DNA of 64,000 nucleotides from Phytohabitans rumicis (GTDB taxonomy: Bacteria; Actinomycetota; Actinomycetes; Mycobacteriales; Micromonosporaceae), in NCBI RefSeq assembly GCF_011764445.1, contig NZ_BLPG01000001.1:7271001-7335000 (forward strand), written 5' to 3'. Position numbers and translations under genes: made by a program. Below the pieces are notes generated by a model. It searched no databases. It was not told the DNA's origin and was given only the letters and a program-made list of their open reading frames with translations. Of this stretch, positions 636 through 9,985 are shown piece by piece; position 1 is the stretch's first letter, and every line of letters starts with the position of its first letter.

Positions 636-2876
636 TCACAGCCCGGCAGCGATGAGTTCCGTGAGTAGCTTGGCACCGCGCTCAACGCGGTCCTCGGTGT
701 CGAACGGCCGGCCCTCGCGTTGTACTTGCGGGATCCGAAGTAAGTGGTCCTTCCCGATTCCTAAAGCCTCGCAAACGGCGTCGAAGGCTTCTCGATCTGC
801 CACGCCGGGCGGCGGCATGAGCTGGAAGCCCTGTTTGACGCATCTGACCCTCGTGTTACTGGAACGTAGGTCCATCCATCGCGCGGCGGTTTCGTATCCC
901 ATGAACCACGGATCCTCGACAGCTTCCTTCTTATCGGTTGCTCTCTGAACAGCTAGCAGGAATGGGTCGCGATACCAGCTGTTCAACTGAGTCTTGTTCA
1001 GCATGCACAGCTGGAAGCCCATCGCCCCGCCAACGGTGAAGTAGATCCCGGACTTGCCCGAGCGCATGGCGTCGTACTTCACGAGGTAATACTGCCAGTC
1101 GAAGGCGTCCTGGTCGTCGATCCACTGTTGGCGGATCTCCCGCAGCACGTCGCGCAGGTCTCCGTCCGCCTCGGAGATGGCGTCGAGCAGTTCGGCAAGA
1201 ACCTTCGACGTGCGGCTCAGGTTCGAGCGTCTCGTGCCAGTGAGCAGACCGCGCCACCAGAGATCATCCTCAGGGGATCCGAATCTGAAGGAACGGGGAT
1301 TCGGGTGCCGGGAGTAGTCGCCATTCGCCAGTAGGGCACCTGTCAAGGCCGGCCAGAGACTCCGATCCGCCATGACCTTCGTGAAGGACGCTGCACGTGC
1401 GGCAAGTCGATCGGCGTTGAGATCGATGGCGACGAGGGATCCGCGTAGAAGCCGGTGATCTTCAAGGGCGAACACGACGCCGGTCAGCTCGGGATGCGCC
1501 GTCAGAAACGCGGCCTTCGCTTTTTCATCCTCGATCTGAGCTTCGTTGAACGTTGACAGACCTGCCAACGCCTCCTCCGGTGAGGCGCCCCGCACGAGGG
1601 TCGTGACCTCCCGGACGAGCGCGGGCATGTTCTCCAGGCGAAGCTCGTTGCCCGAAGCTTCGAGCAGGTTGCGCAGCACGCGGAGTCGGCGGGGAAAGTC
1701 GTCGGTCTGGTGGATGCGGTGGATGAGAACGGCGTAGAGCGTGAGCGTCTCCGCCCAGCCGAACATGCGGCTCCCGCCGAAGGCGTAGCTCTCGCAACAA
1801 GCTCGGAAGTGATCGATCGATTTGGAGCCGAACAGCAGGACCTTCTCCCCGCTCTGCGAGGCGCTGGTCGTGAGGAGATCGGCGAAGAAGGTGGCGACGT
1901 CCATGTCCCGCCACGCGTTGAACGCGTCGAAAAGGAAGTCGAGGTTCTGCGGTCCGTTCGGCCTGCCGGGGCCGAAGACTTCCTCCGCTCGTGTCTCCAG
2001 CCGTTCCCGGGAAATCGTTCCGTTCTGCCACTCGGCGATCTGTGTGACGAAGGTGAAGTAGCGGATGAGTTCGTCGTCGACGATGTCGTCCGTGCCGCGG
2101 TAGGCCCAGAAGACATCGGACCAGGTACCGTCGACACACTCGGCGAACTCCGCCGCACGTGGCGAGCCTTCCAGGGCTTTCTCGAACCTCGCCTTGAAGT
2201 TCTCGAACGGCGTGAGCGGTTTACCACGCGAGTTCATCTTGATGTAGAGCTCGTCGCCCGCCCCCATCTCCTCGATCGGGAGCAGGTGAAACGAGATCGC
2301 GGGGTCAGCCTCGTCGGTTAGCCGCAACCACGCCGCTTCCATGTCGAGGCCCCGGAAGCGGCTGTCGATGGCGTCGATCATGACGAGCATGGACTGAATC
2401 GTCGGATCGTGCCGCCACACGTGCAGGTACCAGAACTGATCCTTGATCCAGGCGGCCGGTGTCCCCACCGCGCACGGCGGCGGGTTCTCGGCGAGCCGTT
2501 CACAGAAGAGCCTCGCGCTGGCCCTGGTCGCGTACGAGAAGCGGGTCCAGTCCAGCCCGGCCTCGAGCCGACCCGTTCGAAATGCGAGGTACCAGTGGAG
2601 CAGGAACAGCGTCGTGAGCCGCTGCTGACCGTCCAACGGCCGCAGTGTTCCGCCCTGGACGTCGCCGTAGACGAAGTCCAATCCCACTCGGTTTTCCCCG
2701 ACGGCCGCCCCGAGCAGGACATCCAGGAAATCTGATCGTATGTCGGCGACCGCCTCGTCCACCCGCCCTTGGGCGTAGTCCCGTTGGATCAATGGGATCT
2801 CGATACGTTCGATGGTGGCGACCTCGTCACTGCGAGGACGGAAGAGACCGACGTAGCTCGTGACGATGCCGCTCAT
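636..2876 (-). CDS. DUF262 (GmrS-like) domain protein, second gene of pair
   Basis: This is a 746-residue protein. The N-terminal DUF262/ParB-like fold is shown by IPLIQRDYAQGR (about residues 28-38) and the diagnostic DGQQRLTTL at 82-90. DUF262 domains in GmrS-type proteins bind and hydrolyse nucleotides; in the GmrSD type IV restriction enzyme they pair with a DUF1524 HNH nuclease. I see no clear EHI-type DUF1524 motif in the C-terminal half here, so the nuclease function probably lies in the partner. Its ATG overlaps the stop codon of the upstream gene by 4 bp (ATGA at 2873-2876), so the two are translationally coupled. The likely role is anti-phage defence, inferred from family and arrangement. 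Confidence 0.8.
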   Translation of the reverse strand: MSGIVTSYVGLFRPRSDEVATIERIEIPLIQRDYAQGRVDEAVADIRSDFLDVLLGAAVGENRVGLDFVYGDVQGGTLRPLDGQQRLTTLFLLHWYLAFRTGRLEAGLDWTRFSYATRASARLFCERLAENPPPCAVGTPAAWIKDQFWYLHVWRHDPTIQSMLVMIDAIDSRFRGLDMEAAWLRLTDEADPAISFHLLPIEEMGAGDELYIKMNSRGKPLTPFENFKARFEKALEGSPRAAEFAECVDGTWSDVFWAYRGTDDIVDDELIRYFTFVTQIAEWQNGTISRERLETRAEEVFGPGRPNGPQNLDFLFDAFNAWRDMDVATFFADLLTTSASQSGEKVLLFGSKSIDHFRACCESYAFGGSRMFGWAETLTLYAVLIHRIHQTDDFPRRLRVLRNLLEASGNELRLENMPALVREVTTLVRGASPEEALAGLSTFNEAQIEDEKAKAAFLTAHPELTGVVFALEDHRLLRGSLVAIDLNADRLAARAASFTKVMADRSLWPALTGALLANGDYSRHPNPRSFRFGSPEDDLWWRGLLTGTRRSNLSRTSKVLAELLDAISEADGDLRDVLREIRQQWIDDQDAFDWQYYLVKYDAMRSGKSGIYFTVGGAMGFQLCMLNKTQLNSWYRDPFLLAVQRATDKKEAVEDPWFMGYETAARWMDLRSSNTRVRCVKQGFQLMPPPGVADREAFDAVCEALGIGKDHLLRIPQVQREGRPFDTEDRVERGAKLLTELIAAGL

Positions 2877-4582
2877 GCGGCGCTCGAAGCGGTGAGATAC
2901 GGGTCGAGCAGGCGGAGCATCTCGGTGAGGTAGCCTTCACGATCTTTGGTACCCCAGAAGTGGGTCTGCTGGGCGTGCGCGTCGGTGTAGTACTTCAGAA
3001 ACGCGTCGCGAGTGCACGCGGGGATGTAGGCACCGACCTTGTCCCGTCGGATGATCTCCTGCCGTTTCACCTCGAAAACGGAGTTGTTCAGGGCGCTGTT
3101 GTCGCCGCTTGCCAGCAGGGCGAGGTTCGAGATCGAGTGCATCTCGTCCTCTGTCTCGCCACCGGCCGAGAGGATACGGACAACGCGTTCCTCCAGCTCA
3201 CGGAACTTGTTCTCGGGTAGCGGGCTGGTCGCCAGTACGCCGTCAATGTCCGCGATCAGCATGTCGCGCTCAGCCTCGCTGTCCGTCGGGACGGCGGACA
3301 ACGCCTCGCGATGCAGCCGAAGCCATTCGGTCCATTGCTCGGCCCGGCGGAGGGGGTCTGCGTTCCGAGCGTGAATGTGTTCCAGCGACCATGCTCCTGA
3401 TGCGTGGGCCTGAAATGAGTACCGTTCGGAGGAGCCGGTGCGCCGGCGGATGGACTCCACGTTCATCAGGAGAAGAACCTCGGTGCATTTCTCGGAGGGG
3501 TAGGTCAGCTCTCTGATCTGGTCGGCTGTCCGAAGGAGTCGTGCGCGAATCCTTGCCGTGAGGATGGCCTCGAGTTCGGACCTTGCCCGGCCTCGGGCGA
3601 GGTTCACAACGTTCTCGAAAAGCTCACCCATCGCCACTAGAAAACCGATCCGATGGTAGAGATCTCGGTCCTCGTACCAGCCGAGGAGCAGGGAGTGCAT
3701 GTCTTGGATGTCGTTCCACACCGAGCGCGCTGACTCCTCGATGCGCGGGCGCAAGGTCTCAAAGGTATGGAAGAGGGGTCGCGATCCCCGGACCGGCGGC
3801 TTCGAAACGGCGTCTGCGAGCGTGTCGAGGATCAGGCGGATGTGGGTCGCCTCTCCGTGGGCCTTCTTGGTGACGAACGCCCAGACCTCGGGTGCGCGCA
3901 GGTCCCGTTCGATTACATCCCACTGGGCCGCCACTTCGTGCGCTTGGTCGGTCTGTCCGGGGGTGTCCCGTACCCTCGCGAGGAGAAGTGCCTTAACCAG
4001 CTCGGCGTCGGTCAGCGGAATACGTCCGACATTGAGTCGCCGGAAAAGCTCCTTCGAGTCCGTCTGCGTGGGCGCCTCGTACCAGATAACCTGGACGGAC
4101 TTGGACATGGCGGTGTAGAAGTCGATCGCTGCCTGAAGCTCGTTGCCTTGACGGTTGAACCACTCACGAATACACGCATAAGCTTTGTAGATGTGGAAGA
4201 AGTCAATGTTGCGAGTGTGGTCGTCGGGGTTCAGTTCCGACAAATAGGCTTGGCTGTCGGGCCTTGTCTCATATTCCAGTGAATAACGTGGATGCGCGGT
4301 CGGAAGGGCGTTGAGCCGGATGTACTGGAGGATGAGAAAGAGCGTCGTCAGGCGCTGTTGCCCGTCGACGAGCTCCCACCTGCCGTCGGCCAGCCGCTTC
4401 ACCACGATGGGCTGAAGATAATACGGCTCGTTGCCGCTCTGCTGAATGTCGTCGAGCAGTCGACCGACCTCGTGCTCGCCCCACCGATAGCCGCGCTGGT
4501 ATCCGGGGACGAAGAAGTGGCCATCGAGGTCGCCGACGAAGCGTCGCTGGAGTGTTGCCTCATCGAAGGTCGGCTCAGGCAT
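2873..4582 (-). CDS. DUF262 plus DUF1524 (GmrSD-like) protein, first gene of pair
   Basis: The 569-residue protein has YQRGYRW at 28-34 and DGQQRLTTL at 73-81, which identify the DUF262 domain. Near residue 400 the sequence SLEHIHARN, and later NLALLASGDNSALNNSVF, match the DUF1524 HNH-like nuclease pattern (histidine before a late N-L-x-L-L block). It is therefore a complete GmrSD-like single-chain protein: nucleotide-dependent sensing in the N-terminus and DNA cleavage in the C-terminus. GmrSD-family enzymes cut modified phage DNA, but the target of this one is unknown. It is the first gene of a two-gene operon; the second DUF262 protein starts within its stop codon. A transposase relic lies just upstream. 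Confidence 0.82.
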   Translation of the reverse strand: MPEPTFDEATLQRRFVGDLDGHFFVPGYQRGYRWGEHEVGRLLDDIQQSGNEPYYLQPIVVKRLADGRWELVDGQQRLTTLFLILQYIRLNALPTAHPRYSLEYETRPDSQAYLSELNPDDHTRNIDFFHIYKAYACIREWFNRQGNELQAAIDFYTAMSKSVQVIWYEAPTQTDSKELFRRLNVGRIPLTDAELVKALLLARVRDTPGQTDQAHEVAAQWDVIERDLRAPEVWAFVTKKAHGEATHIRLILDTLADAVSKPPVRGSRPLFHTFETLRPRIEESARSVWNDIQDMHSLLLGWYEDRDLYHRIGFLVAMGELFENVVNLARGRARSELEAILTARIRARLLRTADQIRELTYPSEKCTEVLLLMNVESIRRRTGSSERYSFQAHASGAWSLEHIHARNADPLRRAEQWTEWLRLHREALSAVPTDSEAERDMLIADIDGVLATSPLPENKFRELEERVVRILSAGGETEDEMHSISNLALLASGDNSALNNSVFEVKRQEIIRRDKVGAYIPACTRDAFLKYYTDAHAQQTHFWGTKDREGYLTEMLRLLDPYLTASSAA

Positions 4583-7512: not shown

Positions 7513-8980
7513 TCACCGGGCCACCTCGAACAACGTGAGTTCACCCTCGGTCTCATTCGGACCGTCGACGTCGTCAAGGTCGTCCGACGCGATCTCGTCG
7601 TGCTCGGTAGCCTTCCGCGGGTCGGCGAGCCAGGCTTTGTCATCAATGGACCGGTCGCCCTCGAACGTCATCAGATGGCCGTAGGTAAGGATCGTGTTCC
7701 TGAAGTCCAGGGTGTCATCGCCGCCCTGGAGGTAGTGCGCCCACATCCGGGTCTGGTGGTAGACAGCGGGGTTGCGATCCAGACGTTTGATACCGGCGAG
7801 GTACTCAGATGTCGTGTGGAGTCTCAGACAGGTACAGCGAGTCGCAGTAGCCGTCGTGGGTGTAGTGGTAGGTCGGAACGAGGGCGCAGAACCACTCGCC
7901 GTCGATGTCCAGGAACTGCCATTCCAGGGCGGCGTGGAGGCAATAGCTGATCTTGTCGGGCGCAGTCTTCTTGTACTTCGGCGTGAAGACCTGCCAGGTT
8001 CGCCCGCTGACGCTTCGAATGCTCTGGGCGGACAGGTCTGCCGTCGGGCGCCAGTAGATGATCTTCCGCCCGCCGTGCCACTCGCAATCGGCCGCGACAT
8101 CGGATCGGAACGCATTGTTGAGGAGTTGCACCAGCCAACGCTGCCTCACCAGGTCGGCCCGGATCGTTCCACATACGCGCAGCCATCTGGTCCGTCTTGC
8201 CCCTAACGAGAGTGCCGAGGGCGGACTGCTCGGGGCGGATGCCAGGTGTAGACACGGTTGCTGCGAATGATGAAGTCCTCGCGCACCGGCAGGTTCGTGT
8301 CGAGTTCGCGTTGACGCCGCAGGAGTTCGCGGGGGTCCTGGATGTCGATGGCGGCGTGGTAGATCGTCGGCGGGATTGCCACGTGCAGAAGGTTGCTGGT
8401 CAGGGTCTCACTGCGGTGTTCTGCGGCGGGGGTATGCGCTTGACCGTGGGGGTCCGCGAGGTTGAGCAGGCGATGCCCGGCAGCGGCGTCGAACTTCTGC
8501 GTGCTCTTGTCGAAGTCGATGCGGCCGGACGCCCGATGGGCCGGGTCGGCGAACCAGCCCTGGACGTGCGTCCACCACGCCTCCCCGGTCTTGGGGTGTG
8601 AGCAGATCAGCAAGACCGGTAATGACGCGCTCATCCAGTAATCGACGTCCGCGTCTGTGCGCAGGAAGTGAAAGGTCCGCTCGTTCTCGCCGGGGACTGG
8701 GCGGTCTCTCGCCTTGCTCTGGGCGAACAAGACCCGATTGGCAACCTCACCGGTGGTGGGGTCTCGCAGCTCGATCTCCCCGTCGATGCCCGCGTCGATC
8801 TTCCGCTCGTGCCAAGACGAGGCCTATCGCGTTGACGAGCCGGTGGATCAGGGCGATCCCGCTGTCGCCGATGTGCGCGCTCGCGTCGACCTTCTTCACC
8901 CGGGCGTCTCCGTCCCTCTGCTCGTGCTGCCTCAGCCGAACTCGGGCGGGCCGGCGCCGACCGGTCCGCTCCGAGGGCAC
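7513..8980 (-). pseudogene. DUF4365-domain protein, split by several frameshifts
   Basis: Four consecutive minus-strand frames join into one protein. HIGDSGIALIHRLVNAIGLV (about 8890-8820), then GIDGEIELRD...FAQSKARDR and DVDYWMSASLPVLLIC (8810-8230), then a linker (8250-8150), then WYRPTAD-type and HYTHDGYCDSLYL sequence (8149-7805), then KRLDRNPAVYHQTRMWAHYL to the stop at 7513. The first half is DUF4365, a PD-(D/E)XK-like nuclease-fold domain common in defence islands (D, E, and Q-x-K positions are intact). The shifts sit near 8812, 8240, 8150 and 7805. Conservation within the pieces is good, so the damage is recent or due to sequencing errors. Confidence 0.65.
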
Positions 8981-9175: not shown

Positions 9176-9985
9176 TCATCGTTCCCTGTTGGTCGCAATA
9201 TTTCGAAGCGCCTCGGCCGCATCCGGGCCAAGCAATTGATTCTCTGGCAAGGTCACCTCCCAGCCATCACTTCTTGAGGTGGTATTTGACGGTGAGATGT
9301 GCACCCAATATGCCTTATTGCTATCGGGGTTCACAAGGACTGTTACTACGGGCAAAGCGTAGCCCAGTAGGTATTTGAGCTGATCGGGCCGGGGAGAACG
9401 GAGCACCCAACCTTGACCCCGCCGGTTCCTGAAATAGGGTAGGCCGGTCTTAATTATGACGGCGATCAGTTGACCGGTAGGCTCATGATCGGAGTTGACG
9501 ATTTCGATGTGCGCGTCGACTCCGTAGTCGAAGACCTGTTCCTGGAAGTGCCAGCCCATCTCACTGATCGCGCGATAGACAATCAATGTCCCAATGCGGC
9601 CAATTATCTCTGGACGTGGCGCCGTATGCGATTGCCGCGACGAAAATGTCGGCGCCGCATCCTTGGGTGTGGTGGAAGCCGGCGGATGTTCTCTACTCGC
9701 CGCCAGCCAGAGAACGTGGAAGCGTCTGACCTCGTCGTTCGTCTCGGGGCCACCTGGCACCCGGCTCGCCAACTCTTCCACTAGAAGCTCGATCAGGCCC
9801 CACACCGGGAGGCGCGGCTCAGTAAACGCCTCATGTATGCGGCTCCGACTGGCTACGCCCTTACCGAGGGCTCGTTTCAAGTCGCTCAGCGAAGGAAGCC
9901 CCGCACTCTCGTGAAGGTCATGCAGTGCGGTGCTGAACTGCGCGACGGCCGGAGTCATTGGGCCTGGACGCTTCATCCTGGCCAA
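9176..9985 (-). CDS. DUF4365-domain protein with N-terminal helical domain
   Basis: This 269-residue protein has an N-terminal helical domain (about 10-75, SLSDLKRALGKGVASRSRIH) of the kind placed before effector domains in actinobacteria. A DUF4365-like domain follows (about 125-260) with GRIGTLIVYRAISEMGWHF, GVDAHIEIV and LIAVIIKTG. These supply the D, E and K expected of a PD-(D/E)XK-type nuclease core. It is intact, unlike the other DUF4365 gene just downstream on the same strand. The likely role is in defence or DNA processing, inferred only from family and neighbourhood. Confidence 0.6.
   Translation of the reverse strand: MARMKRPGPMTPAVAQFSTALHDLHESAGLPSLSDLKRALGKGVASRSRIHEAFTEPRLPVWGLIELLVEELASRVPGGPETNDEVRRFHVLWLAASREHPPASTTPKDAAPTFSSRQSHTAPRPEIIGRIGTLIVYRAISEMGWHFQEQVFDYGVDAHIEIVNSDHEPTGQLIAVIIKTGLPYFRNRRGQGWVLRSPRPDQLKYLLGYALPVVTVLVNPDSNKAYWVHISPSNTTSRSDGWEVTLPENQLLGPDAAEALRNIATNRER

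What the first reader, a model, noticed from the sequence alone, without database searches (positions are those of the whole stretch)
636..4582. Overlapping DUF262-DUF1524 and large DUF262-only pair: candidate two-component type IV-like defence system
The upstream gene is a complete GmrSD-like protein, but the 4-bp-overlapping second gene is a 746-aa DUF262 protein that I cannot assign a nuclease. A pair made of one full enzyme and one nuclease-free, extra-long DUF262 protein implies hetero-complex formation, with the large one perhaps sensing or regulating.
Basis: partly seen in the sequence, partly recalled or inferred. Interest (0 to 1): 0.58.

Follow-up and report, generated by a model that had tools for sequence, protein, structure and literature searches.

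The report
Two-gene GrwAB-like phage DNA restriction system
Two overlapping bacterial genes encode a matched pair of proteins, one with a DNA-cutting domain and one long partner without a recognisable one, that closely resembles a recently described anti-phage system (GrwAB) known to attack viruses with chemically modified DNA, so this is a good new example of a known kind rather than a new system.

Summary
On the minus strand, gene A (4582-2873, 569 aa; DUF262 plus His-Me/DUF1524 nuclease) overlaps by 4 bp gene B (2876-636, 746 aa; DUF262 only). Pfam finds GmrSD_N and nothing else in 29 B-type proteins. The genes travel together: every B-type gene found follows an A-type gene (six phyla; 16 of 16 plasmid records, one with a transposase gene between; 13 of 13 viral contigs). 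Among 394 genomes of the class, full-length A and B profile hits fall in the same 4. Unexplained is B's C-terminal 300 residues: a confident model (pLDDT 90.8) without a convincing structural match. Verdict: new member of a known kind. V. cholerae GrwA/GrwB sequences were not at hand, so direct homology was not tested.

The parts
2873..4582 (-). Gene A (GrwA-like), 569 aa: DUF262/GmrSD_N (residues 21-201; motifs Q29-R30, DGQQR 73-77, F180xxxN184), linker, His-Me/DUF1524 nuclease (E401-H402, N486, N495)
   Evidence: Pfam; motif positions; E401, H402, N486 and N495 in 25 of 25 aligned relatives; GmrSD_C detected in 11 of 14 A-type proteins; dN/dS 0.13
636..2876 (-). Gene B (GrwB-like), 746 aa: DUF262/GmrSD_N (23-231; Q31-R32, DGQQR 82-86, Y211xxxN215), GmrSD-type helical region to about residue 449, then a C-terminal module without a recognised fold
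   Evidence: Pfam; GmrSD_N only in 17 of 17 and 16 of 16 members (four proteins are in both sets); DGQQR in 25 of 25; AlphaFold2 model pLDDT 84.8; matches to SspE, DndI and BrxU end near residues 443-486
2873..2876 (-). 4-bp ATGA overlap: stop of A inside start of B, as expected for translational coupling
   Evidence: sequence; a -4 gap in 12 of the 31 distinct pairs in the table
639..1544 (-). C-terminal module of B, residues 445-746 (mainly helical to about residue 605, then an alpha/beta domain of about 140 residues); holds the least conserved stretch of B (651-725)
   Evidence: AlphaFold2 of this part alone: pLDDT 90.8, pTM 0.89; no Foldseek match at E <= 0.001 in PDB or BFVD, best VIA Z 3.9; conservation 0.20-0.24 in residues 651-725

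Best explanation
[quoted passage not shown] Most likely mechanism: A and B form a complex. The DUF262 domains of both proteins bind NTP through DGQQR and jointly read a hypermodified base in invading phage DNA. B's long C-terminal module, which sits where single-chain GmrSD enzymes carry the nuclease, takes part in recognition or in gating. NTP hydrolysis then licenses the His-Me nuclease of A (H402/N486/N495) to cut or nick the phage DNA. Shown here: gene structure, domains, conserved catalytic residues, purifying selection, strict pairing, and no recognisable nuclease in B. Carried over from published work on GrwAB, TgvAB and GmrSD_ECOR17: need for both proteins and dependence on modified DNA. 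Inferred: complex formation and the division of labour. Unknown: which modification this pair recognises, and what B's C-terminal module does.
For: Order, architecture and motifs equal those published for GrwAB: GrwA (DUF262 + DUF1524; R81, H431, N521, N530) and, encoded by the second gene, GrwB (DUF262 + 'multiple domains of unknown function'; R86) (PMC12137116 section 11). In the window: A R77, H402, N486, N495 (N-to-N spacing 9 in both) and B R86. Pairing: 3 of 3 genome-contig loci, 16 of 16 plasmid records, standing for 12 distinct copies, and 13 of 13 viral-contig loci with a B-type gene. In 394 class genomes (own genome included) 5 have a B match, 4 of them full length; 122 have an A match, 4 of them full length (583.7-781.5 bits), in the same 4 genomes; the next A score is 92.6 bits. 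A and B distance matrices correlate at r = 0.94 for 25 pairs; the highest of 2000 shuffles is 0.41. B matches SspE, DndI and BrxU structures over residues 1 to 443-486. The pair is absent from 5 of 5 same-genus genomes and occurs on plasmids, as expected of mobile defence genes.
Against: V. cholerae GrwA and GrwB sequences were not at hand, so homology to them outside DUF262 was not tested. H-to-N spacing in A is 84 against 90 in GrwA. GmrSD_C in A is only just over its cut-off (24.6 against 23), and in a six-frame search at E <= 0.001 the model did not report gene A in the own genome or any match in G387, and reported the A genes of L001-L003 at only 21.7-23.5 bits. B's third motif is YxxxN (F in 1 of 25), and it lies in the least confident stretch of the full model (205-220). 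Structural matches of full-length B have low TM-scores (0.16-0.25 by query length) and large rmsd (8.7-21.1). PADLOC-DB (2023) has no model of this pair: best hits are HEC-06 for A (E 6.4e-25) and Orf5 for B (E 1.6e-5, residues 18-93). Linked genes give correlated trees without physical contact, so r = 0.94 is no evidence of a complex. No phage or biochemical data exist for this pair.
Confidence: 0.82

Rival explanations
1. The pair belongs to the TgvAB / GmrSD_ECOR17 type: a DUF262-only protein encoded first and a DUF262-nuclease protein second.
For: Both types pair a DUF262-only with a DUF262-nuclease protein and need both (PMC11411939 section 9; PMC12373910 section 9).
Against: Gene order is reversed. 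Two viral-contig loci with the TgvAB order (L047, L049; 441 and 434 aa first, 595 and 593 aa second) have DUF7834 in the first protein; no B-type member has it (0 of 17, 0 of 16). The GrwAB authors state that GrwB and TgvA are distinct outside DUF262. TgvA's own sequence was not examined here.
Confidence: 0.05
2. A and B are two independent enzymes that merely sit side by side: A is a single-chain GmrSD and B a separate defence protein.
For: A alone has the domain set of single-chain GmrSD enzymes.
Against: No B without A was found, and full-length A hits occur only in genomes with B (4 of 394 for both; the first look scored only two or three candidates per genome). Order and close spacing are conserved across phyla. 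In TgvAB, GmrSD_ECOR17 and GrwAB both genes are needed.
Confidence: 0.05
3. The pair is a phosphorothioate-sensing effector like SspE or DndI, restricting DNA according to the host's own backbone modification.
For: The best structural and sequence matches of both proteins include SspE and DndI.
Against: No DndC-family match in the own genome (TIGR03183, 0 matches; none of the 14 control genomes passed the cut-off, so this search had no positive control above it). No modification genes among the 10 neighbouring open frames scanned with Pfam. SspB/SspC-type genes were not searched for by name.
Confidence: 0.05
4. B brings a second, unrecognised catalytic activity (for example a divergent nuclease or DNA glycosylase) in its C-terminal module.
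For: The module is confidently modelled, has no convincing relative in the structure searches, and holds residues kept in 23-25 of 25 (E451, K454, E472, G479, W594).
Against: No evident conserved set of nuclease-like residues: D473 is kept in 14 of 25 and H474 in 19 of 25. Mutating A's nuclease alone abolishes GrwAB defence, which does not exclude a second activity.
Confidence: 0.08

Closest known systems
[quoted passage not shown] cholerae VSP-II; Adams et al. 2025, PMC12137116)
   Same: Two-gene operon, DUF262-DUF1524 protein first and DUF262-only protein with an extended C-terminus second; QR and DGQQR motifs and an FxxxN-type motif in both; DGQQR arginine at residue 86 in B; His-Me H/N/N residues in A with the same 9-residue N-N spacing; homologues widespread (authors: 471 hits, about 1% of the genomes examined; 45,725 genomes searched).
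   Different: Host not named, closest copy found is in Micromonospora; sequence identity to V. cholerae GrwA/GrwB not measured; no phage data; B's third motif is YxxxN, not FxxxN; H-to-N spacing in A is 84, not 90.
TgvAB (V. cholerae VPI-2; Vizzarro et al. 2024, PMC11411939) and GmrSD_ECOR17 (PMC12373910)
   Same: Pair of a DUF262-only and a DUF262-nuclease protein, both needed, acting on T-even phages.
   Different: DUF262-only protein encoded first; two TgvAB-ordered loci found here have a first protein of 434-441 aa with DUF7834, absent from B-type proteins.
Single-chain GmrSD family: Eco94GmrSD, BrxU, SspE, DndI
   Same: Gene A has their DUF262-linker-DUF1524 layout; B shares DUF262 and the helical region.
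   Different: Described as single-protein nucleases; B has a module of unrecognised fold in place of the nuclease.

Membership tests
GrwAB | Two-gene operon, nuclease protein first, DUF262-only protein second | tested here: met
   conserved in relatives
GrwAB | GrwA: DUF262 with QR, DGQQR, FxxxN plus DUF1524 with His-Me H/N/N | tested here: met
   Q29-R30, 73-77, F180-N184, H402, N486, N495
GrwAB | GrwB: N-terminal DUF262 with QR, DGQQR (R86), FxxxN | tested here: met
   Q31-R32, 82-86, Y211-N215; third motif starts with Y, not F
GrwAB | GrwB: extended C-terminus of unknown domains, no DUF1524 | tested here: met
GrwAB | Sequence homology to V. cholerae GrwA and GrwB beyond DUF262 | not tested
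GrwAB | Both genes needed; restriction of phages with modified DNA | not testable with these tools
   published for GrwAB only
TgvAB | DUF262-only gene first, DUF262-DUF1524 gene second | tested here: not met
   order reversed
TgvAB | DUF262-only partner related to TgvA beyond DUF262 | tested here: inconclusive
   DUF7834 in 2 of 2 first proteins of TgvAB-ordered loci examined, in 0 of 17 and 0 of 16 B-type proteins; TgvA itself not examined
Single-chain GmrSD / BrxU | One protein with DUF262 and DUF1524 acting without a DUF262-only partner | tested here: inconclusive
   A has the domains; strict pairing with B argues against solo action; no experiment
SspE / DndI (phosphorothioate sensing) | Host phosphorothioate modification genes | tested here: inconclusive
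   no DndC match in own genome; SspB/C not searched

The most novel reading that the evidence does not exclude
The C-terminal module of B (residues 445-746) is a previously undescribed DNA-modification reader or nuclease-gating domain with a fold not yet represented among solved structures; its fast-changing stretch (residues 651-725) would set which modified base each GrwAB system attacks, so that two-protein type IV enzymes separate reading (B) from cutting (A).
Probability: 0.3. Interest if true: 0.55.

Novelty: new member of a known kind. Interest (0 to 1): 0.33.

Why it matters
It adds an example, closest to one in Micromonospora, and a set of diverse pairs from six phyla to the two-protein GmrSD-like restriction systems, whose need for two proteins their discoverers leave unexplained. 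It pins the open question to one module: a confidently modelled 300-residue part of the partner that occupies the place of the nuclease and has no convincing relative in the structure searches.

Tried and rejected
Hidden nuclease in B: Pfam at E up to 1, PADLOC, NCBIfam, PHROGs, profiles against PDB sequences, hhalign against the A family, Foldseek and VIA on the full model and on the C-terminal module gave nothing convincing. The VIA list is a second look at Foldseek's own matches and does not exclude a known fold; its rows for the module have Z 3.9 or less over 51-117 residues and are treated as chance.

Phage collection: tblastn of B against 50,697 phage records gave no match. Viral-contig scans with the Chryseobacterium and Hymenobacter proteins gave no relative; the Peptoclostridium one found one locus already held. 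A paper search for DUF262 structures gave nothing; a search for VC1767 and VC1766 gave the two papers already known.

Other genomes: the B profile in 398 genomes of the Cupriavidus phylum gave 3 genomes with a match: the Cupriavidus genome used as centre (full length) and weak partial hits in G650 and G697. The first look scored only two candidates per genome, so some may be missed. Relatives: 1 of 61 genomes, the own one. The own genome has 2 GmrSD_N matches, these two genes.

Rows dropped: the weak partial B-profile hits in G311 (L008), G650 (L032) and G697 (L033) are not counted as B-type. L008 and L032 hold pairs of other DUF262 proteins; L033 was not followed. Two of the 15 viral loci (L047, L049) are TgvAB-ordered and not counted as B-type. 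The mirror test (25 pairs) leaves out L005, L006, L007 (gene A cut by the end of the fetched stretch), L011 and L020 (damaged B-type gene), L040 (short B-type frame, 522 aa), L043 (B-type gene cut by the contig end) and the repeat records L081-L084. L010's A-type gene lies in two frames; only its longer open frame was used, and that row causes the 24 of 25 counts at A residues 29-30 and 73-77. L011 and L020 are not in the B alignments, L010 and L011 not in A2; L040 and L048 are not in A6.

GmrSD_C was sought in seven carriers: the own genome's two matches (C1:4656435, C2:172578) lie elsewhere and were not followed; gene A itself was not reported there at E <= 0.001.

Papers whose passages were seen but which are not used as evidence: PMC10952713 and PMC8544851. 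Gomez and Waters 2024 on TgvAB was not read; it is known only through PMC11411939 and PMC12409362.
Full report
What is there. The minus strand carries two overlapping genes. Gene A (4582-2873, 569 aa) comes first in transcription order; gene B (2876-636, 746 aa) starts inside A's stop codon with the sequence ATGA. A has GmrSD_N (DUF262) at residues 21-201 and GmrSD_C (DUF1524) at 478-510; B has GmrSD_N at 23-231 and nothing else in Pfam up to E 1. Both have the codon-position bias of real genes in a GC-rich genome. Against the nearest copy found, in Micromonospora globispora (L001, 94% and 92% protein identity), dN/dS is 0.13 for A and 0.20 for B. The two genes are somewhat poorer in GC (0.62, 0.63) than the window (0.67).

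Relatives. B has relatives in three genome contigs (38-92% identity), in 16 plasmid records (27-52% identity over the matched part; five phyla beside repeats of the same plasmid) and in 13 of the 15 viral-contig loci found. The named records come from six phyla: Actinomycetota, Pseudomonadota, Bacillota, Bacteroidota, Campylobacterota and Spirochaetota. Among the 31 distinct pairs the gap is -4 bases in 12; leaving out L011, L006 and L007 it runs from -56 to +100. In L006 and L007 the table shows larger overlaps because the longest open frame was taken; the profile matches there lie 32 and 77 bases apart.

Pairing measured against a background. In 394 genomes of the window's class (own genome included), 5 have a match to the B profile, 4 of them full length. 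122 have a match to the A profile, 4 of them full length (583.7-781.5 bits), in the same 4 genomes, while the next A score is 92.6 bits. For 25 pairs the A and B distance matrices correlate at r = 0.94, against at most 0.41 in 2000 shuffles: the two genes move as one cassette without visible partner exchange. This does not by itself show physical contact. None of 5 other genomes of the same genus has the B gene, so the cassette is probably mobile.

Active-site anatomy. In A the DUF262 motifs Q29-R30, D73-R77 and F180-N184 and the nuclease residues E401, H402, N486, N495 are conserved (nuclease residues 25 of 25; QR and DGQQR 24 of 25, the exception being a gene in two frames). GmrSD_C is recognised by Pfam in 11 of 14 A-type proteins, weakly in the window's own. 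In B, Q31-R32, D82-R86 and N215 are 25 of 25 and Y211 is 24 of 25. No B-type protein has GmrSD_C at E <= 0.01 (0 of 17 and 0 of 16; four proteins are in both sets, so 29 in all). hhalign joins the A and B families over DUF262 and the start of the linker (B residues 22-324, probability 98.4%) but not over B's C-terminal part.

Structure. The AlphaFold2 model of B (16 sequences, mean pLDDT 84.8, pTM 0.68, weakest at residues 205-220) matches DndI, SspE and BrxU (Foldseek E 1.3e-4, 1.8e-3, 7.7e-2 with low TM-scores; VIA Z 11.6, 12.9, 5.8 over model residues 1 to 449, 486, 449, rmsd 8.7, 21.1, 17.1). The large rmsd means that the arrangement of the parts differs; the tool warns that Z under about 13 can be common for helical models, but these three stand well above the unrelated rows (3.9 and less). 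BrxU and SspE carry DUF1524 after DUF262 and a helical linker (PMC11411939 section 9); B has another module there instead. Folded alone (residues 445-746, 14 sequences) this module gives pLDDT 90.8 and pTM 0.89. Foldseek finds no match with E <= 0.001 in PDB or among viral models, and the second look by VIA gives Z 3.9 at best. It may be a new fold or a known one too diverged to see.

Comparison with what is known. GrwAB of V. cholerae WASA strains (PMC12137116; [quoted passage not shown] Both are required. Variants GrwA R81A, H431A, N521A, N530A and GrwB R86A abolish defence. The system restricts Queuovirinae and Tevenvirinae and some Markadamsvirinae, and escape mutants of one phage map to dpdA. 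The window pair has the same order, architecture and motifs, with B's arginine at the same number, 86. TgvAB (PMC11411939; sections 9 and 10 in full and passages) and GmrSD_ECOR17 (PMC12373910; section 9 in full and passages) are further two-protein systems, but with the DUF262-only gene first. Viral contigs L047 and L049 show that order with a first protein of 441 and 434 aa that has DUF7834, a domain absent from B-type proteins. So the window pair is of the GrwAB type. A review (PMC12409362, passages) notes that GrwB differs from TgvA by its extended C-terminus and that the need for two proteins awaits study. The limit of this filing is that V. cholerae GrwA and GrwB sequences were not at hand.

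Mechanism. Most likely A and B form a complex in which both DUF262 domains use NTP, the modified base is recognised, and A's His-Me nuclease cuts. What is shown is anatomy and co-occurrence; the rest is carried over from GrwAB, TgvAB, BrxU and SspE. The role of B's C-terminal module (reader, gate or scaffold) is open; the low conservation of residues 651-725 (0.20-0.24; residues 326-350 of the helical part are equally low, 0.24) would suit a part that adapts to changing targets, which is inference. A phosphorothioate-sensing role like that of SspE/DndI is unlikely because no DndC match exists in the own genome, though SspB/SspC were not sought.

Verdict. It is a new member of a known kind of moderate to low interest; the unexplained C-terminal module of B is the part worth work.

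Noticed in passing
window 8203-8730 and 7805-8149, minus strand: Two neighbouring open frames: the first matches residues 58-215 of the PADLOC model Aga_REase-PNTD1-PNTD2 (429 positions, E 1.3e-47) and part of DUF4365; it looks like a remnant of an Argonaute-associated protein (meaning of the PADLOC name recalled). The second has no Pfam match; that it belongs to the same gene is a guess.
   Followed up: partly
window 9176-9985, minus strand: A second DUF4365 protein (269 aa, Pfam E 1.6e-26). A DUF4365 gene also lies next to the GrwAB-like pair on the Entomospira plasmid (L015 2584-3090), so this family may be a companion of such loci.
   Followed up: partly
L080 10238-13111 (own genome C1, ends near window position 110), plus strand: 957-aa NB-ARC protein with tetratricopeptide repeats that converges on the pair; no PADLOC match at E 0.001.
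   Followed up: partly
L013 (Hymenobacter), L016 (Bartonella), L018 (Chryseobacterium), L019 (Prevotella), all plasmids: A WYL-domain gene lies upstream of the pair in L013, L016 and L019; a 3'-5' exonuclease gene directly precedes gene A in L018 and L019. This suggests regulated cassettes with an accessory nuclease.
   Followed up: no
L011 4001-6287, L020 4001-7548 (Paenarthrobacter plasmids); L010 2273-4004 (Paraburkholderia plasmid): Damaged copies: the B-type gene is in pieces in L011 and L020, with an IS3-family transposase gene at different places in the two; the A-type gene lies in two frames in L010.
   Followed up: partly
L047 3917-7033, L049 2633-5719 (viral contigs): TgvAB-ordered pairs; the first protein carries DUF7834 and the second GmrSD_C, so DUF7834 may be a mark of TgvA-type partners. 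L008 and L032 hold further pairs of DUF262 proteins whose other domains were not tested.
   Followed up: partly
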